64,000 bases of DNA from NCBI RefSeq assembly GCF_018362975.1, contig NZ_CP074371.1, positions 6,138,001-6,202,000 on the forward strand, written 5' to 3'. The DNA comes from Nocardia tengchongensis (GTDB taxonomy: Bacteria > Actinomycetota > Actinomycetes > Mycobacteriales > Mycobacteriaceae). Of this stretch, positions 27,518 to 61,290 are shown piece after piece. The notes beneath the pieces were generated by a model. It had not been told where the DNA came from. It saw only the letters and a program-made list of their open reading frames with translations, and made no database searches. Position 1 is the first letter of the stretch. Every line of letters starts with the position of its first letter. The translations under genes and the position numbers were made by a program.

Positions 27518-28130
27518 CGCGTTACCGCCTTCCGAATCGGAGAATCACCACGCTGGGAACCAGCGGCACGGCCGTTACCGCGTTGCTGGGCAAGCTTTTC
27601 CTCGTACAGTCGCCGTTGCCGTTGCACCATCTCCTCCGCCTTGGCCATGCGGTCCAGCATGGGGGCACGCCAGCAATGGCAGATGGCCAGGGCGAGCGCG
27701 TCGGCGGCGTCGGCGGGTTTGGGCGCGACGGCCAGCCCGAGGATACGGGTCACCATCGCGGTCACTTGCGCCTTGTCCGCCGTTCCGTTGCCGGTGACGG
27801 CCGCCTTCACCTGAGACGGGTGTGGAAGTGCACCGGGATCTTGCGCCGCGCGGCCGCGAGCGCGATCACGCCGCCCGCCTGCGCGGTGGCCATGGCGGTG
27901 CGCACATTGTTCTGGGAGAAGACCCGTTCGATGGCGACGACTTCGGGCTTGTGATTGTCCATCCAGGCTTCGGCGGCATCGGAGACCAGCAGAAGTCGTT
28001 GCGCCAGATCCATTTCCGGCGGCGTGCGCACCACGCCGACCTCCAGCATGGACACCTGCCGGCCCAGACTGCCGACCACCATGGACAGACCGCACCGGGT
28101 GAGCCCGGGGTCGACGCCCATCACCCGCAC
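27514..28130 (-). CDS. ruvC: crossover junction endodeoxyribonuclease RuvC (one frameshift)
   Basis: Holliday junction resolvase (about 205 aa after correction). The N-terminus [18 protein letters not shown] holds the first catalytic Asp; [10 protein letters not shown] holds the catalytic Glu; the C-terminal part has [19 protein letters not shown] and [15 protein letters not shown] with the last acidic residues. The two parts are in different frames: near 27818 one C of CACACC(C)CGTCT is missing, producing an early stop at 27807. Because all catalytic motifs remain on both sides, a consensus error is more likely than gene loss. GTG at 28130 has GAGAGGGG upstream. The first gene of ruvCAB. Confidence 0.92.
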
Positions 28131-28252
28131 CGAAACCCCTCTCACCGTGAACGAACAACTGTTCGAGAGTCTAACGGACCCCCGCCGCGACATTGTCCAT
28201 CGACACGGCCGGTCGGGCGCCGATTCCGGGCACTCGGCCCCACCGACAACGC

Positions 28253-29824: not shown

Positions 29825-31630
29825 GTGACTGATTTGCTTCCGCAAACCTCGCCCGGGCCGCGTGGCGGAGTCGACGCGCCGCCCCCGCGGCACGGGCTGA
29901 CCGTCGCGACCGGGCTGGCCGGACTCTCCCTGGACGCCATGGCCTCGGTCGCCTACGGCCCCGAGGCGATCGTGCTGGTCCTGGCCGCCGCCGGTGCGGT
30001 CGGCCTGGGCTTCACACTGCCGGTGACGCTGGCGATCGTGGTGCTGCTGGCCGTCCTGATCGCGTCCTACCGGCAGGTCATCGCCGCCTTCCCGAACGGC
30101 GGCGGGGCATACGCGGTGGCCAAGGCCCGGCTCGGGCGGCGGACCAGTCTGGTGGCGGCGGCTTCGCTGATCGTGGATTACGTCCTCAATGTCGCCGTCT
30201 CCATCGCCGCGGGCGTGGCGGCGCTGACCTCCGCGTTCCCGCAGCTGTTCCCGTACACGATGTGGATCTGCCTGGCGGTGCTGGCCGGGATCACCGTGCT
30301 CAACCTCTACGGCATCCGCGAAAGCGCCCGCGCCTTCATGGCGCCCACCATCGTGTTCGTGCTCGGCATTCTCACCGTGATCGTCGCGGGTCTGCTGCGG
30401 TCGGAACCGGCCACCGTGGCCACCGGCGCGGCGGTCGCCGAGAACGCGCGCACCATCGGAATCCTGTTGCTGCTCAAGGCCTTCTCCAGCGGATGCGCGG
30501 CGCTGACCGGCGTCGAGGCGATCGCCAACGCGGTGCCCAGCTTCGCGCAGCCGAAGGTCAAGCGCGCACAGCGGGCCGAGGTGGCGCTGGGTGTGCTGCT
30601 GGGCGTCATGCTCATCGGATTGGCCACTCTGATCGGCAAATTCGCCATCCACCCGATCGAGGGCACCACGGTCCTGTCACAGCTGACCGAGGCCGCGCTC
30701 GGCCACGGCATCGCCTACTACATCGTCCAATTCGCGACGGTCATCCTGCTGGCCCTGGCCGCCAACACCTCCTACGGCGGCCTGCCGACCCTGACCAAGA
30801 TCCTGGCCGACGACAACTGCCTGCCGCACCGGTTCGCGGTGAGCTCGCAGCGGCAGGTGTATCGCTTCGGCGTGGTCACGCTGGGGATCTCGGCGGCGGT
30901 ACTGCTGGCCGCGTCCGGCGGCGATATGAACGCCCTGGTGCCGCTGTTCGCGATCGGCGTGTTCGTGGGCTTCACCATCGCCCAGGTCGGCATGGTCCGG
31001 CATTGGCTGGCTGCGCGCACCCCCGGCTGGCAGTGGCGGGCGGCGTTGAACGGATTCGGCGCGGTGCTCACTTTCGTGGCGCTGATCGTCACCACCGCAA
31101 TGAAATTCACCGAGGGCGCCTGGCTGATCGTGGTGGTGCTGCCGCTGCTGGTCGCGGCGATGGAGCGAATCCGCACCGTATACACCCGCATCGACGGCTG
31201 CCGGGGCGCGGGCTGCGTGCCCGCCGTGCCCAAGGCCACCGAGACCGCCATCGTGGTCCCGGTGTCGGAGGTGTCCGAACTCAGCCGCGAGGCGCTCTCG
31301 GCGGCTATGTCACTGGGCCGGGACGTGATCGCGGTGCACGTGTGCCTGCCGGGCGAGAACATCACGGTCTTCACCAAGGAATGGGAGACCTGGCATCCGG
31401 ACGTGCGCCTGGTCCTGCTCGAGGACGGCGACGCGACCGTGGGCGGTCCGGTCGCGCGCTATGTCGCCGACAACTTCCCCGGCCGCCGCAAGGTGGTGGT
31501 GATCGCCGAGATCGAGCCGCCCGCCGGCTGGAATCACGTGCTGCCCAGCCATCGCAGTGACGAGCTGGAACGGGTGCTGCGCAAGATGAACGACACCGTG
31601 GTGTGTCACCTGCGGGTACAGACCGCCTGA
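29825..31630 (+). CDS. KimA-like potassium / amino-acid-polyamine-organocation transporter
   Basis: Membrane transporter of 601 aa: about twelve hydrophobic segments (residues 25-455) and a soluble C-terminal domain of roughly 130 residues with a USP-like pattern ([28 protein letters not shown]). The start of the membrane part, [22 protein letters not shown], closely resembles B. subtilis KimA (YdaO), a proton-coupled high-affinity potassium importer of similar length, and [20 protein letters not shown] also fits. I infer a K+ importer; a general amino-acid permease is the alternative. It starts at a GTG (29825), divergent from pdxT with a 94-bp gap, and is closed by a strong hairpin. Confidence 0.75.
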
Positions 31631-32632: not shown

Positions 32633-33654
32633 ATGTCTTGGAAACGACGGCTCCTGATCGCCTCGAGTTGCGTTGCCGCCCTGGTCGTGTCGGCGGGCGG
32701 ATGGGTGATCACGCAGCACGATTTCGACATTCGTGAGCAGCGGGTCGCCATCACCGGGGCATGCAACCCCTGCAGGGCACCCTGGCGCTGCCGAAGCAGG
32801 GCGACGGCCCGTTCGGACTCGTCGTCTTCGTCCACGGGGACGGGGCGGCGACCGCCGACCGTGACGAGTTCTACCGGCCGATCTGGGAGAGCTTCGCCGC
32901 CGCCGGGTACGCGTCGCTGTCCTGGGACAAGCCGGGAGTCGCCGGGGCACAAGGCAATTGGCTGGACCAGACCATGCACGATCGGGCCGTCGAGACCGAG
33001 GCGGCGATCGCGTGGGCGCGCGGACGGTCCGAGATCGACGCGGGCCGGATCGGCCTGTGGGGCATCAGCCAGGCCGGGTGGGTGATGCCCGAGGTGGCGG
33101 TCCGGCATCCGGAGCTGCGGTTCATGATCGCGGTCGGCACGGCGGTCGACTGGATCAGGCAGGGCGAGTACAACCTGCGCGCCGAACTGCGCGAGCGGCA
33201 CGCCACCGACGACGAGCTGTCCGCGCAGCTGCGGCGGCGCGAAGCCGACCTTGCCCTGTTGCGCGAGGGCGCGAGCTACGACCGATACCGGGCGACCACC
33301 ACCGATTCCCCGCCCATGTCGGAGGATCGCTGGCGGTTCGTGAGCAAGAACTACCAGTCCGATATCACTGAAATCCTTCCGCAACTCGAGGTTCCGACCT
33401 TGCTGCTGCTCGGCGAGCGTGACCTCAATGTCGATGTCGCCGAAACCGCGCGCGTATACCGCCAATCGGTGCCCGCGAATCTGCTGACCGTCAAGACCTT
33501 CCCCGACGCCTCGCACAACATCGTGAAGTTCGACCTCGACAAACCCGACGGCCTGCGACCAATGCTCGTCGCGCTGTTCGCACCCCGATCCCTCTACGCC
33601 CCGGGCTATCTCGACACACTGCGCGAGTACGTCGCCCATCCCCCGAACCACTGA
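32633..33654 (+). CDS. secreted or membrane-anchored alpha/beta hydrolase (one frameshift)
   Basis: Alpha/beta-hydrolase (about 340 aa after correction) with an N-terminal hydrophobic anchor (LLIASSCVAALVVSAGGWVI). The hydrolase part has FVHGDG as the oxyanion strand, GLWGISQAGWV as the nucleophile elbow (G-I-S-Q-A), LLLLGERDLNVDV with the acid and DASHNIV with the His. One G of the run at 32756-32759 appears missing; upstream the frame reads REQRVAITG, and the rest resumes as MQPLQGTLALPKQG. The ATG at 32633 is just after an AT-rich TGTATGATAG promoter region. It is followed at 21 bp by a dehydrogenase-like gene and then a PaaX-type regulator, probably one unit. Substrate unknown. Confidence 0.8.
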
Positions 33655-34893: not shown

Positions 34894-35787
34894 GTGGACG
34901 ATCTGATTCCGGCCACCGAGATTCCGACCCGGACGTTGGTGGAGAGCATGATCCGCGAGGACGCCACCATCGACGCCGGCGAGCTCTACGACGTCGCGGC
35001 CGCCCTCGGCATGACCGATCAGCAGGTGCGGTTGTGCATCAAAAGGGTCGTCGCCGAAGGGCTGTTCACGCACGAGGGCCGCGGCCGCAAGGCGGTCCTG
35101 CGCGCCACCGAGGACACCCGCGCGGCGCTCGCCCCCGAACTCGACTACCTGCGGTTGATGTACGCCCAGGATCGTCGGCAGGTGAGCTGGGACGGGACCT
35201 GGCATCTCGCGGCGTTCGCGGTGCCCGAAACCGACCGGACCGCACGGGATGCCATGCGGAACACCCTGGTCGAACTCGGCGGCGCACCCATCCAAGGCGG
35301 GCTGTACGTGTCGGCGCACCCGTGGGAGGAGCGAATCAGCGCGGCGGCAAGCGAATTCGGGATCGCCGGGAACCTCACCACGCTCCACACCGGCGATCTG
35401 GCCGTCGGAGGTTTCACCGAGGCACGAGAGCTCGCGGCGCACCTGTGGCCGCTGGACCGGCTCGCGGCCGGGCACGAACGCTTGCTCGGGATCGCCGAGC
35501 ACGTGCGGTCGGCATTACCGGCGGCCGATGCGACGGAACGGATCACGCTCGCCATCACCCTGGTGGCCGAATTCGACCGCGCCCACGACCCGGACCCGCT
35601 GCTACCGCCCGAGCTGCTCCCCCAACCGTGGGCCGGCGCCGCCGCACGCGCGGTGGTCGCCGAATGCTGGGCGGCGCTGGACGCCACTCCCCTGCCGCCG
35701 ATCCGACTGTTCCGCTGGTACGCGGAGGCGGTCGCCGAAATCACCACCGGGGATCAGACCGAACACCGTCTTCCTGCCACGCCGTGA
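34894..35787 (+). CDS. PaaX-family transcriptional regulator
   Basis: A 297-residue regulator with PaaX-type architecture: an N-terminal winged HTH (ELYDVAAALGMTDQQVRLCIKRVVAEGLF), a middle domain with WDGTWHLAAFAVPETDRTARD and the C-terminal domain with PELLPQPWAG. Family members repress phenylacetate or other aromatic degradation genes and bind acyl-CoA ligands. GTG at 34894 has GAGGAG upstream. It is 18 bp after the dehydrogenase-like gene, suggesting that it regulates its own three-gene unit. Confidence 0.85.
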   Translation: MDDLIPATEIPTRTLVESMIREDATIDAGELYDVAAALGMTDQQVRLCIKRVVAEGLFTHEGRGRKAVLRATEDTRAALAPELDYLRLMYAQDRRQVSWDGTWHLAAFAVPETDRTARDAMRNTLVELGGAPIQGGLYVSAHPWEERISAAASEFGIAGNLTTLHTGDLAVGGFTEARELAAHLWPLDRLAAGHERLLGIAEHVRSALPAADATERITLAITLVAEFDRAHDPDPLLPPELLPQPWAGAAARAVVAECWAALDATPLPPIRLFRWYAEAVAEITTGDQTEHRLPATP

Positions 35788-35897: not shown

Positions 35898-36275
35898 GTG
35901 CTGGCAATCGCCGAGGTCGATCAGGCCTTGGCCCGGCTCGACGCCGACCGTGGGGAGATCGCCGCGAATCTCGCGGAGCTGGAACACCATCCGGGGGTGC
36001 GGTTCCTCGACGAGGTGCCGCCGACCGGCGTGAGCGCCGCCCGGTGGGCCGCGGCCCGGGCCCGGCTGGATCGGCTGTGGGCCGAGTTACGAATGTTCGA
36101 GGGTGTTGTCGCACAGGCGCACCGGATACGGGCGCGCCCTGGGGTGCCGGAGCTCACCGAATTGCTGCGATACCGCCGCGCCCACGAGCTGTTGCATTCC
36201 ACGCCTTGCGATCTCGCGGCCGCCACCGGAGCGGTGACCGAGTATCAGCGGGCCATCACCGAGAAGACGGCATGA
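35898..36275 (+). CDS. small helical protein of unknown function, coupled to the kinase gene
   Basis: A 125-residue soluble protein rich in Ala, Arg, Glu and Leu, predicted almost entirely helical. There are heptad-like stretches such as VDQALARLDADRGEIAANLA and ARARLDRLWAELRMFEGVVA. It has no signal peptide or membrane segment. GTG at 35898 has AGGGGGT upstream. Its stop codon overlaps the start of the PknG-like kinase (ATGA), so it belongs to the signalling operon and is presumably its first gene. I do not recognise a family. An adaptor or coiled-coil partner of the kinase is a reasonable guess only. Confidence 0.7.
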   Translation: MLAIAEVDQALARLDADRGEIAANLAELEHHPGVRFLDEVPPTGVSAARWAAARARLDRLWAELRMFEGVVAQAHRIRARPGVPELTELLRYRRAHELLHSTPCDLAAATGAVTEYQRAITEKTA

Positions 36276-38546
36276 CCATGACCCACTGTCTGCGGCCCGA
36301 CTGCGGCGGCACGATCGACGACGGCTTCTGTGACGAGTGCGGGCTGGCCCCCGCGCCGCCGTCCGCCTCCGCCGGGCCGACGGCCCTCGTCGCGGCCGTC
36401 GCGACGTCCAACGGGCACGCGATGTCCGCCGCGCAGTCGATGACTGCCGCGGGTTCGTCGCGGTCGGGCCGCCAGAGCCGGCGCGGGTCGAGCCGCTCCT
36501 CCTCCCGCTCTACCCGCACCGCGCGGTCGAGCCGGGGTCGACTCGGCGCGGGTCTCGTGTCGATTCCCCAAGTCCCGTACCGGGATCCGTCGACAGCGGT
36601 GATGACCGACCCGCAGGTGCCCGAGAACGAGCGCTTCTGCAGCAACTGCGGCCAGCGGGTGGGGCGCGGGCGCGAGGGCGCGTCCGGCCGCACCGAGGGA
36701 TTCTGCCGCCAGTGCGGCACCGCCTACTCCTTCACCCCGAAGCTGGCCGCGGGCGATCTGGTGGCCGGACAGTACGAGGTGCTGGGCTGCCTGGCCCACG
36801 GCGGTCTGGGCTGGATCTATCTGGCGCGGGACCGCAATGTCAGCGACCGCTGGGTGGTGCTCAAGGGCCTGCTCGACACCGGCGACGCCGACGCCATGGC
36901 GGCGGCCGTCGCCGAGCGGCAGTTCCTGGCATCGGTGGAACACCCCAATATCGTCAAGATCTTCAACTTCGTGAAGCACCCCGACCCGCGCACCGGGGAG
37001 CCGGTCGGCTACATCGTCATGGAATACGTGGGCGGTGCCTCACTGAAAGAGCTGCGCTCCCAGCGGGATTCGGCCGGGCGACTGCAGCCGCTGCCGCTGG
37101 ACCAGGGGCTGGCCTACATTCTCGAGATCCTGCCCGCGCTGGGCTATCTGCACAGCATGGATCTGCTCTACTGCGATTTCAAACCCGACAACATGATCCA
37201 GACCGAGGAGCAGCTCAAGCTCATCGACCTGGGCGCGGTCCGCCATCGCGACGACGAGGAGAGCGCCGGATTCAAGACCGACGGCTACTGCGCACCGGAA
37301 CTGGAAGACGAAGGCGCGTCGGTCGAATCGGATCTGTTCACCGTCGCGCGCACGCTGGCGGTGCTGACCTTCGGCTTCGACTATCGCGGGGCCTACCGGT
37401 ACACGGTGCCGCCCGCGACCGAAGTGCCGCTGCTGGCGCAGTTCCCGTCGTTCCGGCGGCTGCTCGAGCGCGCCACCGCCACCGACCCCAGCGAGCGCTT
37501 CGGATCCGCCTCGGAAATGGCCGAGCAGGTCACCGGTGTGCTGCGCGAGGTGGTGGCCACCCAGGACGGACAGCCGCGACCGGCGTTGTCGACCGTATTC
37601 AGCGGCGAGCGTGCCGCCTTCGGCGCCAACCCCGAACAGTGGCCCGCCACCCCGGATCCGTCCGTGATCGCGGCGGCGCTGCCGGTGCCGATGGTGGACC
37701 CGGCCGATCCGGCCGCGGGCTTTCTCCCCCACCACCTCCATCGGCGATCCCCGGCAGCTGGTGACCGCGTTGGAGGCCGCGCCGGTGTCCTCGCCGGAGG
37801 TGACCCTCGCACTGGTCCGCGCCCGCATCGAGTGCGGGGACCTCGATGCGGCGCTCGCCGATCTCGACGCGCTGGAGGAGTCCGAGGACGCCGACTGGCG
37901 GATCACCTGGTACCGCGGGCTGGCCGCGCTGGCCGGCCATGATTTCGGCACCGCGCGAGTCCGTTTCGACGCCGTCTACGACATGTTGCCCGGTGAGGCC
38001 GCACCCAAGCTCGCGCTGGCCGCGGCCGCCGAGCGCGCGGGCGAACCCGGCCCGGCCGCCCAGCTGTACCTGCAGGTGTGGCGCACCGATCAGGGCTACC
38101 CCAGCGCCGCGTTCGGGGTGGCGCGCACGCGATTGCGGGAGCGCGACATCGACGGCGCGATCACCGCCGCCGACTCGGTGCCGGCCACTTCCAGCCATCA
38201 CGGCGCCGCCCAGCTGGCCGCACTCCGCGCACAACTGGCCGGCGCGACCGGATCGGGAGCGCACGCCTACCTGGTGGCCGCGGGCCATCGGCTCGAGGCG
38301 CTGCCCCTCGATCCCGAACGCAAGGCCCGCCACGGCATCGCGGTCCTCGACGCCGCCCGCACCATCACGGTCGCGCAGCCGGCCGAACCGGGGGCGACGG
38401 TGCTGGGTTGCCGTTTCGTCGACCGCGAGCTGCGGCGCGCGCTCGAAGCCCGGTACCGGGAGCTGGCGCGCCTGTCCTCGGACAAGCTCGCGCGGCGGGA
38501 TCTGGTGAACCGGGCCAATGCGATTCGACCGGTCAGTTGGGTGTGA
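36272..38546 (+). CDS. PknG-like serine/threonine protein kinase with zinc ribbons and TPR domain (one frameshift)
   Basis: Soluble Ser/Thr kinase of the PknG type (about 757 aa after correction). N-terminal CLRPDCGGTI..FCDECG zinc ribbon (residues 6-23), a Ser/Arg-rich linker, and a rubredoxin-like motif FCSNCGQ...GFCRQCGT (about 120-148). The kinase domain runs from about 163, with CLAHGGLGWIYLARD, the ATP-anchoring Lys in WVVLKGLL, catalytic YCDFKPDNMI and IDLGAV, matching PknG (Asp-Leu-Gly in place of Asp-Phe-Gly). The TPR-rich C-terminus reads SPEVTLALVRARIECGDLDA. The C5 run at 37726-37730 has one extra base, so the second half is in the next frame. In mycobacteria PknG phosphorylates the FHA protein GarA to control glutamate metabolism; here an FHA gene is in the same operon. 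Confidence 0.9.
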
Positions 38547-38563
38547 GGGGTATGAGAGGGTCC

Positions 38564-39550
38564 ATGACGGCCACCACGGAAGAGACCGCCGGCTGTCCGG
38601 CGTGCGGGGCGCGGGTTCTGGCCGCTGATCGCTTCTGCGAGGACTGCGGCGCGGGGCTTGGTACGCACGACACCGAATCCGTTGCGGCACAGTGTCTGTC
38701 GTGTGCGACCGGAACGCTGGACGCGAACGGCTGCTGCCGGGTGTGCGGCAGGCAACCGGCCGTCGCGGACCGGCGCAAACTCGACCTCGGCGCGCTCGCC
38801 GCGGTCACCGACCGCGGAAAACGGCACGCGCACAACGAGGACGCGACGGCACTGCGGGTACTGGACGCCACCCGGATCCTGGTGGTGTGCGACGGTGTGT
38901 CCAGCTCCGATCACGCCGCGACCGCGGCCGACCGCGCCGCCGCGACCGCGGCCGATCGGCTCACCACCGAGCTGAGCAGGGGCGTCGGATCGGAGGCCGC
39001 GACCATTCGGGCCATCGGCGCCGCCGCGGATGCCGTTGCGGCACTGGGTGAGAGCGGTGACCGCACGCCCTCCTGCACGATCGTCACCGCGGTGGTGACC
39101 CCGAGCGCGGTCACCGTCGGATCGATCGGCGACAGTCGCGCCTACTGGCTGAGCACCGACCCGGCCGCGCTCCCGCCCCGCCGCGTGAGCATCGACGATT
39201 CGGTCGCGGCCGGGCTGATGGAGCTGGGCGTCGACGAGACAACCGCGATGTCCATGCCGACGGCGCACACCCTCACCGCCTGGCTGGGCGCGGACGCGGA
39301 CGCCGTGCGGCCGCACATCCTCACCTTCGCCCCGGACGGTCCCGGCGCGGTCCTGCTGTGCAGTGACGGCCTGTGGAACTACTTCCCCACCGCGGCCGCG
39401 CTGACCGAGCTCGCCTTCCCCGACGCCCGCGCCGCTCCGCTCGCCACGGCGCACCGACTGGCCGACCTGGCCCTGGCCGCCGGCGGCAGCGACAACATCA
39501 CGGTGGCCGTCGCACCGTTTCCCTCACCTTCGAGGAGCCCCCGACCATGA
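38564..39550 (+). CDS. PP2C-family Ser/Thr protein phosphatase with N-terminal zinc ribbons
   Basis: Metal-dependent phosphatase of 328 aa. Two zinc ribbons come first: GCPACGARV..FCEDCG and QCLSCATGTL..CCRVCGRQ. The PP2C domain starts near residue 78 with TDRGKRHAHNEDA (metal-binding and Arg/Asp motif), LVVCDGVSSSDHAA, GSIGDSRAYWL, LLCSDGLWNY and GGSDNITVAV, giving all core acidic residues. ATG at 38564 is preferred (GAGAGGG upstream); 38552 is also possible. Its stop overlaps the VWA gene start (ATGA). It probably reverses phosphorylation by the adjacent PknG-like kinase. Confidence 0.93.
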   Translation: MTATTEETAGCPACGARVLAADRFCEDCGAGLGTHDTESVAAQCLSCATGTLDANGCCRVCGRQPAVADRRKLDLGALAAVTDRGKRHAHNEDATALRVLDATRILVVCDGVSSSDHAATAADRAAATAADRLTTELSRGVGSEAATIRAIGAAADAVAALGESGDRTPSCTIVTAVVTPSAVTVGSIGDSRAYWLSTDPAALPPRRVSIDDSVAAGLMELGVDETTAMSMPTAHTLTAWLGADADAVRPHILTFAPDGPGAVLLCSDGLWNYFPTAAALTELAFPDARAAPLATAHRLADLALAAGGSDNITVAVAPFPSPSRSPRP

Positions 39551-40838
39551 ACGCCCCCTTGGGTTTCCGGATCGACACCTTCCAGAACGAGTACCTGCCC
39601 GCGGACGCCACCCGCGTCGACGCGGTGGTCACGGTGACCGCCACGGGCGGCGGCGCGGCACCCGCGAGCGGCGGGGCCGCCGAGGTCATCATCGTCGACT
39701 GCTCGGGCAGCATGGATCACGCCCACGGCAAGCTGACCGCCGCCAAGAACGCCACCGCGGCAGCCATTTCCGCGGTCCGCGACGGCGTCGACTTCGCTGT
39801 CGTCGCGGGCACCGAGAAGGCCCGCATGGTGTATCCCACGACCCCGACGCTGATCACCGCGACCACCGCGAACAAGGCCGATGCCATTGCCGCCGTGGGG
39901 CAATTGCGGGCGGGCGGCGGCACCGCCATCGGCGCCTGGCTGCGGCTGGCCCGGCAGCTGTTCGGCAACCGCGGCGGGCTGCGGCACGCCATCCTGCTCA
40001 CCGACGGCCGCGACGAACACGAGACCCCGCAGCAGCTCGACGCCGAAATCGCCGCCAGCACCGGGGTGCACGTCTGCGACTGCCGCGGCGTGGGCACCGA
40101 CTGGCAGATCGCCGAACTGCGCAAGATCTCCACCGCCCTGCTCGGCACCTGCGATATCGTCGCCGACCCCGCGGACCTGGTGGCCGACTTCCAGGCCATG
40201 ACCGCCACCGCCATGGGCAAGTCGGTCGCCGATGTGGCGCTGCGGTTGTGGACCCCGCGCGGGGCGACGGTCGAGTTCGTCAAGCAGGTCGCGCCCGAAC
40301 TGCTGGATCTGACCGGACGGCGCACCGAAACCGGTACGCAGACCGGCGAATACCCGACCGGCGCCTGGGGCGGGGCGGAGAGCCGCGACTATCACATCTG
40401 CATCGAGGTGACCCCGCGGGCGTCGGCGACGTCATGCTCGCCGGGCGGGTCGCGCTGGTGCGTGGCAGCGGTGATCGGACCGAGGTGCTCGGTCAAGGCT
40501 TGATCAAAGCCGTGTGGACCGACGACGTGACACAGTCCAGCAAGATCAGCCCGGAAGTGGCCCACTACACCGGTCAGGCCGAGCTGGCCGAGGTCATCCA
40601 GGAAGGGCTGACCGCGCGCCGCGACGGCGACCTCGACACCGCCACCCGGAAACTCGGACGCGCGGTGCAGATCGCCGCCGCGTCCGGGAACACCGACACC
40701 GCCACACTGCTCGAGGGCGTGGTGGACGTGCTCGATGCCCGCACCGGCACGGTGCGGCTGAAGTCCGCGGTGCGCAAGGCCGATGAGATGACCCTGGATA
40801 CGCGATCCACCAAGACCTCTCGCGTGCACAAGCGGTGA
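39547..40838 (+). CDS. VWA-domain protein (one frameshift)
   Basis: Cytoplasmic von Willebrand factor A-domain protein (about 430 aa after correction). The MIDAS metal site is complete: DCSGSMD near residue 51, GGGTAIGAWL for the Thr and LLTDGRDEHE for the Asp. The C-terminal half has TPRGATVEFVKQVAPELLDLTG and, after the shift, GRVALVRGSGDRTEVLGQG, and ends in a helical region. One base is missing near 40414 (ACCCCGCGGG), so the last third is one frame over; its stop is at 40838. Such VWA proteins scaffold signalling complexes with kinases and FHA proteins; that role here is inferred from the operon. Confidence 0.87.
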
Positions 40839-40848
40839 GGTGACCGAG

Positions 40849-41529
40849 ATGCACACCTGCCCGGCCGGACACGACTCCGCGGCCACCGACTACTGCGACG
40901 TCTGCGGCCTGCTCATGGAATCGGGCCGACCGACCGCACCCGCACCGGAACCCCCGGCCGCGCCCTGCCCGGTCTGCGGGGAGCCGCGAACCGGACGCTT
41001 CTGTGAGGGCTGCAGTTACGACTTCGTGGCGGGCTCCGCGCCCACCCGGGTCGCGGCCGTACCCGATCCCGCACTCGCCGCCTCCGCCCCCACGGTGATC
41101 GCGCCTACGATCGCCGCGCCTACCGAAAGCGCCTGGACAGCAACGGTCTTCGCCGACCGCGAGTACTTCGACACCATGCGCAGCGAGGACGACGACGTCG
41201 AATTCCCCGCCTACTGCCCCGAACGCACCTTCGTCCTGCACCGCAGGCAGGTACGGGTCGGACGCTACAGCGCCTCGAAGGGGATCGACCCGGAGATCGA
41301 CCTGACCGGTCCCCCGCAGGATCCGGGCGTCTCGCACCTGCACGTGCTGCTCGTCGCCCAGCCCGAGAACGGCTGGGCTGTCATCGATCTCGGTTCCACC
41401 AACGGCACCCGGGTCAACGCGGCCATCGACCCGATCCCGCACGGCACCGCCGTGCCGGTGGGCTCCGGCGACCGTATTCACCTGGGCGCCTGGACCACTC
41501 TCACCCTGAAACAGGACAACGCGTCATGA
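40849..41529 (+). CDS. FHA-domain protein with N-terminal zinc ribbons
   Basis: Phosphothreonine-binding protein of 226 aa. Two zinc ribbons (HTCPAGHDS..YCDVCG and PCPVCGEPR..FCEGCS) are followed by an Ala/Pro-rich linker with several Thr residues (about 66-105) and an FHA domain with VRVGRYSASKG, VSHLHVLLV and VIDLGSTNGTRVN, which hold the Arg, Ser-His and Asn of the phospho-Thr site. ATG at 40849 has GAGG eight bases upstream; GTG at 40840 is an alternative. The arrangement parallels GarA, the FHA substrate of mycobacterial PknG, but the GarA N-terminal Thr motif is not obvious. Its stop overlaps the GlnX-like start. Confidence 0.9.
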   Translation: MHTCPAGHDSAATDYCDVCGLLMESGRPTAPAPEPPAAPCPVCGEPRTGRFCEGCSYDFVAGSAPTRVAAVPDPALAASAPTVIAPTIAAPTESAWTATVFADREYFDTMRSEDDDVEFPAYCPERTFVLHRRQVRVGRYSASKGIDPEIDLTGPPQDPGVSHLHVLLVAQPENGWAVIDLGSTNGTRVNAAIDPIPHGTAVPVGSGDRIHLGAWTTLTLKQDNAS

Positions 41530-42989
41530 CGACGACCCTCGCCCACACCCCGGCGGCGCGCACCGAGACCCGCCCGGACACCGGTGCGCTCGCCCGGGTG
41601 CGCGCCCTGCTGCCCGGCCGGGCGGACACCCCGCGCTGGATTCGACTGCTGGCCATCGCGGCCGTGCTGCTCACCGCGGTGACGGCACTGGCGATGGCCG
41701 CCGACGCCCGAGCCACCCGCACCGGCGTCAACGTCATCGGCCACCACACCGCGCCGACCGTGACCGCCACCGAGGATCTGTACTTCGCGCTCGCCGACAT
41801 GGACGCGCAAGTGGCGAATGTGCTGCTCGCCGGGAGCGATTCGACACTGGCGACGGTGCGCTCCACGGCGCTGGCCACCTACGAGCAGCGGCGGGAACAG
41901 GCCGACGCGGACCTGCAGCAGGCCATGACCATCGCCACCAACGACGATGCCGCGCGACAGATCCGGGAACTGCTCGACAAGTTCGGTCAGTACGAGGCGC
42001 TGGCGGCGGACACCCTGCAGCTCAGCGACATCGACCACGGGACCGCCGGGCAGCCGTCGGCGCGCACGCTCGACGCCTACCGCGCGGCCACCGGCCTGGT
42101 GCCGGATCTGCTGTCGCGCGCGCAGCGACTGGCCGACCGCAACAGCGGTGTGCTGAGTCAGGCCTACCAGGACAGCGAACACACCACGGTCGCCGCGCGC
42201 ACCCGCATCGCCGGGCTCGGGACGCTCGTGCTCGGTGTGCTGATCGGACTGCAGATCGTGTTGCGGGTGACGCTGCGCCGGCGGATCAACCCGGCGCTCG
42301 CGGCCGCCACCGTGCTGGCCGCGGTGGTACTCGCCGGCGGCTTCGCCGCGAATGCCGCGGCGGCACATCAGCTCACGACCGCAAAGGAGGATGCCTTCGA
42401 CTCGCTGCTGGCGCTGCGGCAGGCCCGGGCGCTCAGTTACGACGGCAATGCCGACGAGAGCCGGTACCTGCTCGATCCGGCGCATGCGGCGGGATATCAG
42501 CAGAGCTTCTTCGACAAGTCGCAGCGGCTGGCGCGGGTGCAGGCGCGCGGCGCCGACGACTACTCGGGCGCGCTCGACAAGGCCCTGGCCACGCATCCCG
42601 GTGATCCGCAGCAGGCCGTCGGCGCCGACTCCTTCCTCGGACAGGAGCTGCGCAACATCACCTTCGGCGGCGAGCAGCAGGCTGCCACCCAGACCCTGGC
42701 CGCCTACCAGGTCTACCAGCGCGACGACCACGCGCTGCGCGGGCTGGCGGGCACCGACCTGCGCGCGGCCATCGCGCTGAACACCGGCGCCTCCAACGAT
42801 CATTTCGCCGCCTACGACAAGGCCCTGGTCGCGACCATCGACATCAACCAGCACGCCTTCGACGCGGCGATCGCCCAGGGCGAGAACGAACTCGCCGGGT
42901 GGACCGCGCGGGTGCCCTACGGAGCGGCGATGGTCGTCGCGATCCTCGTGCTCCTCGGTGTCCGGCCCCGCCTGGCCGAATATCGCTGA
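41526..42989 (+). CDS. GlnX-like four-TM sensor protein
   Basis: Membrane protein of 487 aa with four hydrophobic segments (about residues 40-58, 227-246, 257-276 and 464-478). Two helical extracytoplasmic domains lie between TM1-TM2 and TM3-TM4, resembling four-helix-bundle sensor domains. This is the layout of mycobacterial GlnX, which with the binding protein GlnH passes an extracellular amino-acid signal to PknG. Basic loops (RVTLRRRIN) fit a cytoplasmic side between TM2 and TM3. It overlaps the FHA gene by four bases (ATGA) and ends the signalling operon. No GlnH-like gene is adjacent. Confidence 0.82.
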   Translation: MTTTLAHTPAARTETRPDTGALARVRALLPGRADTPRWIRLLAIAAVLLTAVTALAMAADARATRTGVNVIGHHTAPTVTATEDLYFALADMDAQVANVLLAGSDSTLATVRSTALATYEQRREQADADLQQAMTIATNDDAARQIRELLDKFGQYEALAADTLQLSDIDHGTAGQPSARTLDAYRAATGLVPDLLSRAQRLADRNSGVLSQAYQDSEHTTVAARTRIAGLGTLVLGVLIGLQIVLRVTLRRRINPALAAATVLAAVVLAGGFAANAAAAHQLTTAKEDAFDSLLALRQARALSYDGNADESRYLLDPAHAAGYQQSFFDKSQRLARVQARGADDYSGALDKALATHPGDPQQAVGADSFLGQELRNITFGGEQQAATQTLAAYQVYQRDDHALRGLAGTDLRAAIALNTGASNDHFAAYDKALVATIDINQHAFDAAIAQGENELAGWTARVPYGAAMVVAILVLLGVRPRLAEYR

Positions 42990-43031: not shown

Positions 43032-43644
43032 GTGCCCGAATTCACCGCCCTCAGCCCCGGCGCGCTGCTCGAACTGATCGCCGAGCGCGCCGCGGCGCTG
43101 CCGGGATACGTGGTTGTCGGGTTGGATGGCGCGGACGCGGCCGAACCGCTGACCGTGGCGCGCGGTGCCGCCGAACTACTGCGCGCGGGCGGACGCCCGG
43201 CCGACGTGGTGTCCCTGCACGATTTCGTGCGGCCCGCCTCGGTGCGCCTGGAATACGATCGCGACAGCGAATTCACCTATCGCACAGCCTGGTTCGACTT
43301 CGAGGCGGTGAACCGTGAAGTCCTCAAACCCCTCCGGGACAGCGGGCGATTCCTGCCCGCGCTGTGGAACGAGCAGACCGATCGCTCCGCGCGGGCCCGC
43401 ATTCGCACCGCGGCCGCGGGCACGGTGCTGTTTCTTGTTGGGCCGATGCTGCTGGGCCGCGGGCTGGACTTCGATCTGACCGTGGCCCTGCGCATGTCGG
43501 AGGGCGCGCTGCGGCGGCGGACCGACCCGGCTCAGGGGTTCACCGTCGACGGACTCCTCGAATTCGAGCGGGACCGAACGGAATCGGCCGACATCCTGGT
43601 CGCCTGGGACCACACCCGACCGACCGGCCGTGCAAGGCCGTTGA
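43032..43644 (+). CDS. uridine kinase-like protein without a P-loop; 3' end uncertain
   Basis: A roughly 200-residue protein resembling the uridine kinase/phosphoribulokinase-like proteins of actinobacteria: RPADVVSLHDFVRPASVRLEY, AWFDFEAVNREVLKPL and GTVLFLVGPMLLGRGLDFDLTVALR. The expected ATP-binding P-loop (GxxxxGK[S/T]) is replaced by GLDGADAAEPLTVA, so kinase activity is doubtful. The open frame runs on to 43841, through a strong terminator and into the convergent gene, which is implausible. A stop at 43642-43644 in another frame would follow if the tandem GACC at 43618-43625 or a base nearby is an error. I end it there. It is 43 bp after the GlnX-like gene. Confidence 0.65.
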
Positions 43645-43680
43645 GCCCGGCGCTCGCCTCGAGCCCGGTCACGACGGCCG

Positions 43681-43718
43681 CGGCCCGGGTGGCGTCGTCG
43701 CTGACGCCACCCGGGCCG
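43681..43718. terminator. bidirectional terminator hairpin
   Basis: CGGCCCGGGTGGCGTC (43681-43696) pairs perfectly with GACGCCACCCGGGCCG (43703-43718) around a six-base loop, giving a 16-bp stem. It separates the convergent kinase-like and ParB-like genes and terminates both. Confidence 0.85.
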
Positions 43719-43746
43719 GTCGATCACCTGATGTGGCGAGCCGCGC

Positions 43747-44771
43747 TCAGTGCGCGGCCTTGTAGGCCAGCATGTAGGCGAGCTTGCCGGGCTTGGCGTC
43801 GGAGTACGGCTTCGACAGCTTCGCGAACTCCTTGTCGCTGAACGCGGGCAGCGCGCCCAGCTGGCCGGCGGTGAAGCCGCCGCTGACCTGGGTGTTCTGG
43901 CCCAGCGCCACCATGGCCTGGGAGACGTTCTTGGTCAGCGTCAGGTACGAGGCCAGGTCGCCCATGTGGCCGGCCAGGGTCAGGTTCGGGTCGTTCTGGT
44001 GGGCGCGCAGCCAACGGCCCCAGTAGAACTCGTCGAATCCGGGAGCGTGGTCGGTGGCGTAGCCGACGTCCTTGGCGAAGTAGAGCATGCCGCGGAACTG
44101 GTCGTTCTTCATGTCCTTCAGCGAGAAGTGGAGGGCAGCTGGCGCGGCTTGATCGGCTGATCGTTGTTGTCGTACAGCCACGCCCAGTTCTTCTGCACCA
44201 TCGTGTCCCAGAAGCCCGACGGGTTCAGGTTCGACAGGTTGCCGACGACCTTCAGCCGGATGTGCATGCCCGGGCCACCGTCGGCGGTCTCCCAGAACGA
44301 GGTCAGCGCGTGGTGCCCGTCGGCCATGTACAGCTTGCCGTGCGGGCCGACGACGACGGTCTTCATGTCGTTGCGCGACGCGTCGGTCTCGGCGCCGGGG
44401 GCCAGCTGGCAGGTGAAGGTCGAGGCGTCCTGCAGGGTCGCGTTCGGCTGGGCCGAGGCGACTGCGACCAGACCGCTGTCGGCGCACCAGTCGTCGAACT
44501 TCTTGTTGATGGCGTCCTTGCCGAGGGTGTACCGGCCGAGCTTGTAATCGATCTCGTCGTAACCGACGGAGGGCTGGGTGGGCGCGACGTCGCCGATCGC
44601 GACATCGACGATGTCACCGACCTTGGCGTTGCAGTAGGCCACGTCCTTACCGGACGGGTTGCAGGGGAAATTGCCATTGTCGTTGTCGGCGGCCGCAACT
44701 CCGGCACTACCGGCCACGATCGCCGCGATCGCCAACGCGGATCCGATGATCCGTTTCACGGGGTGGTTCAT
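43747..44771 (-). CDS. secreted ParB-like (PF08857-type) protein (one frameshift)
   Basis: Predicted exported protein (about 341 aa after correction) with a clean signal peptide: basic HPVKR, hydrophobic IIGSALAIAAIVAGSAGVAA and an AAA-D cleavage site. The mature part has VGYDEIDYKLGRYTL and KTVVVGPHGKLYMADGHHALTS, the DGHH motif that marks the ParB-like putative nuclease family PF08857. One base is missing from the G3 at 44133-44135; the rest (LHFSLKDMKNDQFRGMLYFA) is in the next frame and ends at 43747. Eukaryotic and bacterial secreted relatives exist, with unknown function. The ATG at 44771 has GGAGGG close upstream. It stands alone between a terminator and an unrelated gene. Confidence 0.7.
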
Positions 44772-56293: not shown

Positions 56294-58501
56294 TCAGTGG
56301 GTGTGCGCCAAGGCCGATAGCTCGGGGGCGTCGATTTCCCGAATACCGGCCGAGGTCACCTCCAGTACCCGAGCGGTGCCGATGTCGAAGAACAGGCCCG
56401 AGACTCGCAGGCCGTGTTCGAGCATGGCGCGCCGGACCACGGGGTGGGAGCGCAGGGTGTCCACCTGGACGGCCACGTTCACGATGGACAGCTGGTCGTG
56501 GACGCCGTATCCGGCTGCGGCGGCCGCTGCGGCGACCGGGTCGTCGGGATGGAAGCGGTCCAGGCTGGCTCGGCCGTGGACCAGCCAGTTGCCCAGGCCG
56601 GGGCCGGTGGGTCCGCCGGCGACCAGGGCTTTCATCGCACCGCAGGCGGAGTGGCCGCAGACCACGACATTGTCGACGCGCAGTTCGTCGATGGCGAAGG
56701 CCAGGGCCGCCTCGATGGAGGTGTCGCGCCCGCCCGGGACCACGAAGTTGCCGACGTTGCGGATGGTGAACAGGTCACCGGGGCCGGTATTGGTGATGAC
56801 GTTGGGCACGATCCGCGAATCCGCGCAGGTCAGGAAGAGCGAGTGCGGGTTCTGGACGTCGCGCAGCTCGTCGAGGTGCGGGCGCACCACGTGGGCGTTG
56901 CGGCGGTGGAAGGCGGCCACGCCCTGGGTGATCTGGTTGCCCTCGTCCTCCCGCCAGGGGCGCAGCACGTCGTCGAGCAGGGTGCGGGCGCGGCCGCGGA
57001 CCGGCGGGCCGGTCAGGGCGTGCGCCATGCGGGCGGTGCCCAGTTCCACGTATTCGACTGTGCCGCCGGTGTTCTCGTGCTGGTTGGCCCAGTCGTGGAT
57101 GGCCTCGTAGGCGGCGTGGTCGAGGAAGTCGACGCTCAGCTCGATCAGGACGTCGGCGCGCGCCGGCACCTTGGCCAGCTCCGAGGATAGTTTCGGCAGC
57201 GCCAGGAAGGTGCAGGTGCCGTCGATGCTGACCAGCCAGCGGTCGGTTCCGGCCACCTCGCCGGCGGTCACCGACACCCGCACGACCCGCCACAACAGCA
57301 GGCCGAAGGCCAGGGCCAGGCCGATGATGACGCCCTCGAGCAGGTTCAGGAACACCACGCCGAGCACGGTCACCAGATAAACCAGCAGGTCTCCGGTGCG
57401 CCGGGCCATTTTGATGTGCGCGAGCTTGACCAGCTGGATGCCGACCACGATGAGCAGACCGGCCAGCGCCGATTTCGGAATCTGCTGCACCACCCCGACC
57501 AGCGCGACCGAGAACACCAGGATCCACACGCCGTGCAGCAGGGCCGAGGCGCGCGAGCGGGCGCCGGCCTGCACATTGGTGGCGCTGCGGACGATCACGC
57601 CGGTGACGGGCAGACCGCCCAGGCCGCCGGAGATCATGTTGGCCGCACCCTGCCCGATCAGTTCCCGATCGAAGTTGGTGCGCGGACCGGTGTGCATCTT
57701 GTCGACGGCGACCGCCGACAGCAGGCTCTCCACGCTGGCGATCAGCGCGATAGTCAGGGCGGCGAGCACCACCGCGCCCCAGTTGCCGGACGGCAGCCCG
57801 GGCAGCCCGATGGCGTCGAACAGCGAGCCGCTCAACACGATTCGCTCCGGAGCGCCGGGCAATACCAGCGACAGTCCGGTGCCGACGACCACGGCGACCA
57901 ACGGGCCGGGCAGCACCTTCAGCTTGCCGGGCACGTACTTCCAGCCGAACATGATGGCCATCACGACGACGCCGACCAGGAAATCGTCACCGTGGATGCT
58001 GGACAGCTCACCGGGTAGCTGAATCAGGTTCTGCCAGGCCGAACTGTGCGACGACCCGCCCAGCAGCACGTGCAGCTGTTGCAGCGCGATGGTGATGCCG
58101 ATGCCGGCGAGCATGGCGTGCACCACGACCGGTGCGATGGCCAGCGCGGCGCGGGCGATGCGGCTGAGTCCGAACAGAATCTGGAGCAGACCGGCCAGCA
58201 CGGTAATGAAACATGCCGTCTTCCAACCGAATTGGTTGATGGTTTCGGCGACGACGACGGTCAGTCCGGCCGCGGGACCGCTGACCTGGAGTGGGGATCC
58301 TCCGAGGAGGCCGACCACGATGCCGCCGACGACGGCGGCGATGAGTCCGGCCGCGATGGGCGCGCCGGAGGCGACCGCAATGCCGAGCGAGAGCGGCAGT
58401 GCGACGAGAAAGACAACGAGGGATGCAGGTAGATCGTGGCGCAGCAGGCTGTCGAGCCGGCTGACGGTTCTACCTGGCGGTGAATCGGTGTCGCGAGACA
58501 T
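56294..58501 (-). CDS. SulP transporter-STAS-beta carbonic anhydrase fusion, copy 1
   Basis: Large membrane protein (735 aa). Residues 15-410 form a SulP-type anion transporter with VSGPAAGLTVVVAE, ALTIALIASVESLLSA and GGLGGLPVTGVIVRSATNV. A STAS-like domain (about 415-485) includes CTFLALPKLSSEL and VLIELSVDFLDHAAY. The C-terminal 220 residues are a beta carbonic anhydrase with zinc ligands in FLTCADSRIV (near 558) and VVCGHSACGAM (near 615). Likely function: bicarbonate uptake coupled to CO2/bicarbonate exchange. The ATG at 58501 has GAGGAG upstream. A paralogue follows upstream at 58686-60929. Confidence 0.93.
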   Translation of the reverse strand: MSRDTDSPPGRTVSRLDSLLRHDLPASLVVFLVALPLSLGIAVASGAPIAAGLIAAVVGGIVVGLLGGSPLQVSGPAAGLTVVVAETINQFGWKTACFITVLAGLLQILFGLSRIARAALAIAPVVVHAMLAGIGITIALQQLHVLLGGSSHSSAWQNLIQLPGELSSIHGDDFLVGVVVMAIMFGWKYVPGKLKVLPGPLVAVVVGTGLSLVLPGAPERIVLSGSLFDAIGLPGLPSGNWGAVVLAALTIALIASVESLLSAVAVDKMHTGPRTNFDRELIGQGAANMISGGLGGLPVTGVIVRSATNVQAGARSRASALLHGVWILVFSVALVGVVQQIPKSALAGLLIVVGIQLVKLAHIKMARRTGDLLVYLVTVLGVVFLNLLEGVIIGLALAFGLLLWRVVRVSVTAGEVAGTDRWLVSIDGTCTFLALPKLSSELAKVPARADVLIELSVDFLDHAAYEAIHDWANQHENTGGTVEYVELGTARMAHALTGPPVRGRARTLLDDVLRPWREDEGNQITQGVAAFHRRNAHVVRPHLDELRDVQNPHSLFLTCADSRIVPNVITNTGPGDLFTIRNVGNFVVPGGRDTSIEAALAFAIDELRVDNVVVCGHSACGAMKALVAGGPTGPGLGNWLVHGRASLDRFHPDDPVAAAAAAAGYGVHDQLSIVNVAVQVDTLRSHPVVRRAMLEHGLRVSGLFFDIGTARVLEVTSAGIREIDAPELSALAHTH

Positions 58502-58641
58502 ATCGCTCCTCAGCGAGCATGTGCAGGGGCATCGAATAAAAGCTGCGGACGGCATTGGCCGCGCACTCACCGGACGAGCAGAATCAAGGCTAAAGGTAAA
58601 GCCTTAGCAAAGTCTGAGAAAAATTGCCCCGCAACGTTAAA

Positions 58642-58671
58642 GGGGCGTGAATCCTGCCGGATCCACGCCCC
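58642..58671 (-). terminator. terminator hairpin of the second SulP-carbonic anhydrase gene
   Basis: GGGGCGTGAATCC (58642-58654) and GGATCCACGCCCC (58659-58671) form a 13-bp stem with one mismatch and a four-base loop. On the minus strand it is followed by TTTAACG. Upstream of copy 1 there is also a small AAGGCT...AGCCTT inverted repeat (58586-58605) in an A-rich promoter-like stretch. Confidence 0.7.
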
Positions 58672-58685
58672 GAATGCCCGAAATG

Positions 58686-60929: not shown

Positions 60930-61290
60930 ATCTCTCCTTCGCCGGCACGGCGCGGCCGCCCGGTTCATCGGTCAACATGTACTGGCATCGAGAGGCAGCG
61001 GCGGGCGAGGCTGGAGAACCACGACGCTTGGCAGATCGCGGGTAAGCGTAAAGACAAGGCAAAGGAAACGAAAAACGTTTGCGGCAATTGATGCGAACCG
61101 CTACCAAACTGTGACACAGCTCACTTTGCCGGGCGCGTGGGACAAGACGACTCCGACCTGGCGGAAACCGCGCGAAATCTCCGTCTGTTCACCGAAAAGA
61201 CCCTCCCGGTTCGCCGACGCTGCCTATTCTGCGCGCGAGATAGGTGTGGAACCCGGTTGAGACGGGGTCCTTCGGAAAGGATCCCGCGGA
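60930..61290. other. 361-bp divergent promoter region
   Basis: Divergent region between the second SulP-carbonic anhydrase gene and the solute-binding lipoprotein. The centre (61030-61130) is A-rich for this genome and contains the CRP-like site described separately, plus GAAAAACGTTTGCGG. No gene seen. Confidence 0.6.
61110..61125. promoter_or_regulatory. candidate CRP/GlxR-type cAMP-receptor site
   Basis: TGTGACACAGCTCACT matches TGTGA-N6-TCACA with one change in the last base. It lies 181 bp upstream of copy 2 and 166 bp upstream of the lipoprotein gene. Assignment to a CRP-family protein is inferred from sequence only. Confidence 0.5.

What the first reader, a model, noticed from the sequence alone, without database searches (positions are those of the whole stretch)
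35898..42989. PknG-like kinase, PP2C, VWA, FHA and GlnX-like sensor in one coupled operon
Five of the six genes abut by ATGA or short gaps: small helical protein, PknG-like kinase, PP2C phosphatase, VWA protein, FHA protein, GlnX-like four-TM sensor. In mycobacteria GlnH/GlnX sense amino acids and PknG phosphorylates the FHA protein GarA. Here the writer (kinase), eraser (phosphatase), reader (FHA), a VWA scaffold and a sensor are packed together. Inference: a self-contained transmembrane phospho-switch, perhaps for nutrient status, distinct from the housekeeping PknG system. I cannot tell whether this arrangement has been described elsewhere.
Basis: partly seen in the sequence, partly recalled or inferred. 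Interest (0 to 1): 0.8.

Follow-up and report, generated by a model that had tools for sequence, protein, structure and literature searches.

The report
Potassium-linked PknG-type phospho-signalling gene cassette
The six adjacent genes are real and belong to a widespread bacterial signalling cassette (membrane sensor, kinase, phosphatase and partner proteins); this branch lacks the usual amino-acid-binding protein and many of its relatives sit beside potassium-import genes, so it may sense or control potassium, although the copy in this assembly reads as broken in three of its genes.

Summary
As assembled, three genes are damaged: the helical gene lacks about 285 internal codons, and the kinase and vWA frames are each interrupted once, probably by assembly errors. 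The genome also holds a canonical GlnX-GlnH-PknG locus, GarA, and an apparently intact seven-gene cassette. The arrangement is not unique: the same order occurs in 34 of 68 related loci, and the cassette kinases separate from canonical PknG with full support. The new point is a split among sensors. One clade (44 of 44 rows) has a GlnH-like binding protein next door. Sensors without it, the window's type, adjoin potassium-transport genes (Kdp, KUP, KimA, TrkA) in 13 of 18 assessable loci outside Nocardia, against 0 of 59 control loci; only 4 of those 13 carry the kinase. The window's own neighbour is a KimA-type importer. Twenty sensor positions separate the two types, all in the second periplasmic bundle. 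The FHA/vWA pair resembles archaeal ArnA/ArnB. Best reading: a new variant of GlnX-PknG signalling, plausibly tied to potassium; function untested.

The parts
29825..31630 (+). KimA-family potassium importer gene; its end is 4.3 kb upstream of the cassette
   Evidence: AA_permease_2; only PDB match is potassium transporter KimA, 6s3k, E 1e-107, residues 25-546
34894..35787 (+). PaaX-like regulator, 110 bp upstream of the helical gene; family also upstream in L026, L034, L036
   Evidence: Pfam PaaX_M; family f30
35898..36275 (+). helical adaptor gene, here 125 aa with an internal in-frame loss of about 285 codons; about 400 aa in relatives
   Evidence: model of the intact N. terrae homologue is all but wholly helical, pLDDT 91.5, pTM 0.67
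36272..38546 (+). PknG-like kinase: rubredoxin, Ser/Thr kinase, TPR. Frame interrupted near 37.72 kb (open frames 36272-37942 and 37761-38546)
   Evidence: intact N. terrae homologue: Pfam, PDB PknG 2pzi E 5e-160
38564..39550 (+). PP2C phosphatase with N-terminal zinc-ribbon-like cysteines; catalytic motifs present
39547..40838 (+). vWA protein (MIDAS motifs present) with VWA_3_C tail. Frame interrupted near 40.41 kb (open frames 39547-40503 and 40248-40838)
   Evidence: family profile: 4fx5 E 3e-177, ArnB of 8s05 E 1e-12
40840..41529 (+). two zinc-ribbon-like motifs plus FHA domain with the pThr-binding residues
41526..42989 (+). GlnX-type sensor: four TM-like segments, two periplasmic helical bundles, C-terminal PRLAEYR motif; SBP-less type
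   Evidence: (pLDDT 91.8)
43032..43841 (+). P-loop (uridine-kinase-like) gene 42 bp downstream; family also next to the sensor in the Nocardia loci L026, L027, L034, L035, L036
   Evidence: family f17; weak NCBIfam kinase match below cut-off

Best explanation
The locus is a variant of the actinobacterial GlnX-PknG signalling cassette. Shown: a GlnX-type membrane sensor without a binding-protein partner is encoded with a PknG-family kinase of a separate clade, a PP2C phosphatase, a zinc-ribbon/FHA protein, a vWA protein of the ArnB/4fx5 family and a helical protein; many relatives of this sensor type sit beside potassium-transport genes. Inferred: the second periplasmic bundle of the sensor detects an ionic or osmotic cue directly (potassium, ionic strength or turgor) and acts on the kinase through its TPR domain; the kinase phosphorylates the threonine-bearing tail of the vWA protein; the FHA protein, tethered through its zinc ribbons, closes on the phospho-tail as archaeal ArnA does on ArnB; PP2C resets the switch; the output tunes potassium uptake. 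In this assembly the copy may not be intact.
For: Conserved order in 34 of 68 loci, with complete permutations in Dactylosporangium L041 and Undibacterium L098. Kinases: 44 cassette rows against 11 canonical rows, split at 100% SH-aLRT. Potassium-transport genes within the fetched flank: 13 of 18 assessable SBP-less loci outside Nocardia, 0 of 59 SBP loci (Pfam checks; KimA checks). They belong to different importer families: Kdp, KUP, KimA. In L041 the whole cassette lies between KdpDE and KdpCB; in L069 KUP is the next gene after vWA-FHA. Window KimA. 20 discriminating sensor columns, all in the second periplasmic bundle. FHA and vWA profiles match ArnA and ArnB of entry 8s05, and the ArnAB mechanism is published (PMC12852372, passages and Discussion read). 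One Thr of the vWA tail is invariant in 14 aligned proteins.
Against: The potassium link was noticed after looking at neighbours, and the seed list was extended (KUP) after inspection; related species are not independent. 5 of 18 SBP-less loci lack such genes (L079, L095, L097, L098, L101); L057 and L066 count only through KdpD plus a CPA1 antiporter, and L080 only through a KdpB-like ATPase that Pfam does not specify further. Only 4 of the 13 (L038, L039, L041, L069) carry a cassette kinase, so the link is one of the sensor more than of the whole cassette. In Nocardia a KimA gene is in the fetched stretch of the window, L026, L034, L035 and L036 but not of L027, L029 and L037; in G011 it is 13 kb away and in G043 and G006 far off. 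KimA orthologues also occur in 13 of 52 Nocardia genomes without this sensor. A second survey of 246 genomes gave, besides the window, only 13 SBP-type loci and one Frankia locus, so it did not repeat the link. No ligand, phosphorylation or transcript data exist here.
Confidence: 0.5

Rival explanations
1. It is simply an amino-acid or nitrogen-sensing paralogue of GlnX-PknG that has lost or borrows its binding protein (for example the GlnH-like protein of another locus); the potassium genes are bystanders.
For: GlnX-family sequence; canonical GlnH/GlnX/PknG senses Asp/Glu (PMC6069109, passages); the genome's other cassette has its own SBP and lies beside an ammonium transporter; GlnH-like genes are present at L032 and L033 of this genome, though that of L032 reads as interrupted.
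Against: 20 columns of the second bundle are kept in SBP-less sensors but not in SBP-type ones, which suggests a different input; 13 of 18 against 0 of 59 potassium neighbours; the ammonium-transporter adjacency was seen in 2 of 9 Nocardia SBP cassettes with long flanks (L033, L145).
Confidence: 0.3
2. The window copy is a decaying pseudo-locus: three of six genes are damaged and nothing works in this strain.
For: Internal loss in the helical gene and two frame interruptions; remnant sensor and kinase in G036; the sensor type is rare in the genus (7 of 59 genomes at E below 1e-25). Mean ORF length in this genome (322-366 aa) is not below that of the comparison genomes (317-458 aa).
Against: The same assembly also interrupts ruvC, a hydrolase gene and glnH and shows 26 same-strand phase switches in 262 kb against 5 in 240 kb of three other complete genomes. 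All eight pieces compared, also those after the interruptions, have dN/dS of 0.08 to 0.35 against G025 and no internal stop codons.
Confidence: 0.2
3. Potassium genes and these sensors share genomic hot spots without functional connection.
For: In Nocardia the site between tesB and pdxS holds the cassette or only part of it (L035; gene names recalled); 9 of the 13 potassium-linked sensors have no cassette kinase beside them.
Against: Different importer families (Kdp, KUP, KimA) in several families of organisms; none beside 59 SBP-type loci, and no hit with such seeds in the loci screened.
Confidence: 0.25

Closest known systems
GlnH-GlnX-PknG-GarA/OdhI amino-acid sensing pathway (Mycobacterium, Corynebacterium)
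   Same: GlnX-type sensor with four TM segments and two four-helix bundles, PknG-family kinase with rubredoxin and TPR, an FHA partner protein
   Different: No GlnH found here; kinase outside the canonical clade; FHA protein carries zinc ribbons and has no GarA-type ETT motif; PP2C, vWA and helical genes added; potassium neighbours
Seven-gene GlnX-SBP-helical-PknG-PP2C-vWA-FHA cassette (Nocardia, Streptosporangiales and others; seen here, no name found)
   Same: All six proteins are homologous and in the same order or a permutation
   Different: That version has a GlnH-like SBP and no potassium genes in the stretches seen; its sensor lacks the conserved second-bundle residues
Archaeal ArnA/ArnB switch with kinase ArnC and phosphatase PP2A (Sulfolobus)
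   Same: Zinc-ribbon/FHA protein paired with a vWA protein carrying a C-terminal helical/threonine region, a TPR-containing kinase and a phosphatase
   Different: PP2C not PP2A; encoded together with a membrane sensor; archaellum output absent; phosphorylation untested
4fx5 vWA protein of Catenulispora acidiphila (uncharacterised structure)
   Same: Full-length profile match, E 3e-177
   Different: Its gene context was not examined
KdpDE and c-di-AMP control of potassium uptake
   Same: Regulatory genes next to potassium importers
   Different: Ser/Thr kinase-FHA chemistry and GlnX-type sensor; no Rfam hit, so no c-di-AMP riboswitch, in the window, L038, L039 and L041

Membership tests
Canonical GlnX-GlnH-PknG-GarA pathway | PknG domain architecture rubredoxin-kinase-TPR | tested here: met
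   in the window split over two frames; intact homologue
Canonical GlnX-GlnH-PknG-GarA pathway | Kinase falls in the canonical PknG clade | tested here: not met
   11 canonical and 44 cassette rows separate at 100%; for 2 of the 11 (L156, L158) no GlnX or GlnH was found in the fetched stretch
Canonical GlnX-GlnH-PknG-GarA pathway | GlnX equivalog cut-off | tested here: not met
   NF041460 35.8 of 780 bits; family model NF058618 229 of 250
Canonical GlnX-GlnH-PknG-GarA pathway | GlnH solute-binding lipoprotein in the operon | tested here: not met
   No match in the window to two SBP seeds at E 1e-3; present in own L032 and L033
Canonical GlnX-GlnH-PknG-GarA pathway | FHA substrate with N-terminal ETT motif (motif recalled) | tested here: not met
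   Not seen in the A3 alignment; the genome's GarA-like protein near 4533556 has it
ArnAB-type FHA/vWA switch | Zinc-ribbon plus FHA protein with pThr residues | tested here: met
ArnAB-type FHA/vWA switch | vWA protein of ArnB architecture with MIDAS | tested here: met
   By profile match; architecture of 4fx5 likened to vWA2 (ArnE) in PMC6509490 (passages)
ArnAB-type FHA/vWA switch | Kinase-dependent phosphorylation of the vWA C-terminal region and FHA binding to it | not testable with these tools
   Only a conserved Thr in the tail
Potassium-regulatory system | Adjacent potassium-transport gene | tested here: inconclusive
   Met in the window (KimA, 4.3 kb away) and in 13 of 18 relatives; in Nocardia only at one insertion site, and no intact operon link
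Potassium-regulatory system | Response to potassium or osmolarity | not testable with these tools
   No expression or binding data
TerY-P triad (vWA, PP2C, kinase; recalled) | TerY-type vWA and Ter genes nearby | not tested
   Considered from memory only; one paper search brought no closer description

The most novel reading that the evidence does not exclude
SBP-less GlnX-type sensors are direct receptors for potassium or ionic strength that drive a PknG-family kinase and an ArnAB-like FHA/vWA switch, giving bacteria a Ser/Thr-kinase potassium-control system built from the same cassette that, with a binding protein added, senses amino acids.
Probability: 0.3. Interest if true: 0.82.

Novelty: new variant of a known kind. 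Interest (0 to 1): 0.6.

Why it matters
PknG signalling is known as an amino-acid sensor. If one branch of the same cassette is wired to potassium uptake, it would show how a kinase module is re-used by swapping its input, link potassium with glutamate metabolism (its usual counter-ion; established knowledge), and give bacteria a counterpart of the archaeal ArnAB switch with sensor, kinase and phosphatase encoded together. The split between SBP and SBP-less sensors makes direct tests easy.

Tried and rejected
Rfam scan of the window, L038, L039 and L041: no hits. Structure search with the helical protein: no useful match. Structure search with the sensor: no E below 0.001; the sensible matches are four-helix-bundle receptor domains 6s1a and 4z9h at probability 0.90-0.95, and the top-ranked long alignments have rmsd above 20 and were ignored. 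Ammonium-transporter link of the second cassette: 2 of 9 cassettes with long flanks, dropped. An early hit counted as KdpB in L090 is probably a heavy-metal ATPase by its start and falls below the stricter threshold; the potassium gene of L090 is KUP. The sensor tree used the earlier labels, with L090 as potassium-linked and L069 and L093 as other. My first PP2C profile had taken in out-of-frame ORFs of the kinase gene; with a profile from ten stand-alone genes the exact order falls from 37 to 34 of 68 loci, five more lacking only a PP2C match. A strict pattern for the vWA tail fitted 31 of 87 proteins; a loose one (S or G, T/V/Q, any, T in the last 60 residues) fits 84 of 87, but it is loose enough to match by chance. 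L047 and L049 were left out of the 18 because their contigs are too short.

Papers: searches (titles and abstract starts seen in listings); passages read of PMC9769921, PMC1262709, PMC8546545, PMC6069109 and PMC6509490; passages and Discussion of PMC12852372. None of what I saw describes the PP2C-vWA-FHA cassette with PknG or a potassium link; PMC6069109 does call the three-gene pknG operon widely conserved. Most subscription papers are not in the library and supplements were not read.
Full report
What is there. The window lies in an 8.0-Mb single-contig genome; the best matches of the sensor among named genomes are Nocardia species. Between 35898 and 42989 six plus-strand genes follow each other with three ATGA overlaps and two short gaps: a helical protein, a PknG-like kinase, PP2C, a vWA protein, a zinc-ribbon/FHA protein and a GlnX-like sensor. 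Catalytic motifs of kinase and PP2C, the vWA MIDAS and the FHA phosphate-binding residues are present in the translated pieces (motif meanings recalled).

Damage. The kinase frame changes near 37.72 kb and the vWA frame near 40.41 kb; the helical protein keeps only its N-terminal part and C-terminal end, about 285 internal residues being absent in frame. In the same assembly ruvC (27.82 kb), a hydrolase (32.77 kb) and the canonical glnH also read as interrupted (gene names recalled). Same-strand coding-phase switches number 26 in 262 kb of this genome against 5 in 240 kb of three other complete genomes of the genus. This is a crude measure: it did not itself flag the two shifts in the cassette, and mean ORF lengths do not differ clearly. 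All eight pieces compared show dN/dS of 0.08-0.35 against G025. I read the two frame shifts as probable assembly errors; the helical deletion may be real.

Not the housekeeping system. The genome has three PknG_rubred genes. L032 is a canonical GlnX-GlnH-PknG locus. L033 is an apparently intact seven-gene cassette, GlnX-SBP-helical-kinase-PP2C-vWA-FHA, divergent from an ammonium transporter (transporter named by recall). A GarA-like protein is encoded separately. VWA_3_C occurs twice in the genome, once per cassette. A tree of 55 kinases separates 11 canonical from 44 cassette kinases at 100% SH-aLRT; the window's piece before the frame shift falls among eight Nocardia kinases of the SBP-less type.

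A widespread cassette. A scan of genome contigs with the sensor gave 68 loci: 34 carry the exact order on one strand, five more the same without a PP2C match, and L041 and L098 are complete permutations. Hosts include Actinomadura, Nonomuraea, Sphaerisporangium and Dactylosporangium, an Armatimonadota bin and Undibacterium. The VWA_3_C marker is in 54 of 246 class genomes (52 over its cut-off) and in 0 of 14 control genomes. Of 15 such loci fetched, 8 hold sensor, SBP, helical, kinase, PP2C, vWA and FHA; 4 lack a helical match; 3 (L185, L187, L192) show only PP2C, vWA and FHA in the fetched stretch. In 59 genomes of the genus the window's sensor type occurs in 7 (E below 1e-25), G036 being a remnant; 12 more have weak matches, E 2e-8 to 1e-3.

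Two kinds of sensor. In the sensor tree all 44 rows with an adjacent binding protein form one branch at 100%. The SBP-less rows, the window among them, lie outside; deeper order is unresolved. Twenty columns are at least 85% conserved in 29 SBP-less rows and at most 30% in the 44 SBP rows; all lie at residues 290-441, within the second periplasmic bundle (276-460 by hydropathy), none in the first. The model is confident (pLDDT 91.8, pTM 0.85) and helical, with four-helix-bundle receptor domains among its weak matches. The C-terminal PRLxEYR/F motif is shared with canonical GlnX, so the output side is probably kept while the input side differs.

Potassium neighbours. With seeds for KdpA, B, C, D, TrkA, KimA (two), CPA1 and KUP, 13 of 18 assessable SBP-less loci outside Nocardia have at least one hit: 11 an importer protein (Kdp subunit, KUP or KimA), and L057 and L066 KdpD plus CPA1. 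0 of 59 SBP loci do; the 59 include two loci of this genome and four repeats of the same places. Fisher's test gives 5e-11, but relatedness and post-hoc seeds make that number optimistic. Pfam confirms K_trans (L069, L090), KdpA (L046), KdpD (L042, L057, L066) and TrkA (L038) domains; L080 shows only a general P-type ATPase. KimA identity was confirmed for L064 and L038. Misses are L079, L095, L097, L098 and L101. Dactylosporangium L041 has the complete cassette between KdpDE and CPA1-KdpCB. Only 4 of the 13 (L038, L039, L041, L069) carry a cassette kinase. In the window a permease whose only PDB match is the potassium importer KimA starts 6 kb upstream, separated by tesB, a hydrolase, a dehydrogenase-like gene and a PaaX-like regulator (names partly recalled); a closely similar layout recurs in L026 and L036, and a KimA homologue also lies upstream in L034 and L035. 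It is absent from the fetched stretches of L027, L029 and L037. All 7 genomes of the genus with this sensor have the KimA orthologue, against 13 of 52 without (Fisher 2e-4), but it is unlinked in G006 and G043. A second survey with a profile of SBP-less sensors hit 15 of 246 genomes: the window, 13 SBP-type loci (four seen before) and a Frankia locus already known.

FHA and vWA proteins. The FHA profile matches OdhI/GarA and ArnA, and the vWA profile matches 4fx5 over its full length and ArnB of 8s05. In Sulfolobus, ArnA binds ArnB loosely through its zinc ribbon and tightly through FHA-phosphothreonine after ArnC phosphorylates the C-terminal region of ArnB, and PP2A reverses this (PMC12852372). 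The cassette's vWA proteins end in a tail with one Thr invariant in 14 aligned members (tails). This makes phospho-tail capture by the FHA partner the most likely core mechanism; it is an inference.

Judgement. The finding is a new variant of a known kind. The best-supported parts are the cassette, its separation from canonical PknG and the two sensor types. The potassium role rests on gene neighbourhood alone, and on the sensor more than on the whole cassette.

Noticed in passing
window 27724-28205 (-) and 32633-33654 (+); L032 about 7.9-9.0 kb: ruvC, a hydrolase gene and the canonical glnH read as frame-interrupted, pointing to an indel-rich assembly
   Followed up: partly
L033 4957-15674: Second, apparently intact seven-gene SBP cassette of the same genome, divergent from an ammonium transporter; the same adjacency in G011 (L145) but not in seven other Nocardia SBP cassettes with long flanks
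   Followed up: partly
L098 and L079: Complete cassettes outside Actinobacteria: Undibacterium jejuense (order vWA-FHA-sensor-helical-kinase-PP2C) and an Armatimonadota bin, both without an SBP hit
   Followed up: no
L069 7813-18484: Streptomyces sp. STR69: two divergent sensors, then kinase, vWA, FHA and a KUP potassium transporter, with no helical or PP2C match
   Followed up: partly
L037 5868-11431: Nocardia stercoris: sensor-kinase-sensor triplet
   Followed up: no
window 43032-43841: Uridine-kinase-like gene 42 bp after the sensor, kept next to it in five related Nocardia loci
   Followed up: no
window 56294-60968: Two tandem minus-strand transporter-like genes of about 760 aa with similar N-termini (SulP-like by eye, not tested)
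   Followed up: no
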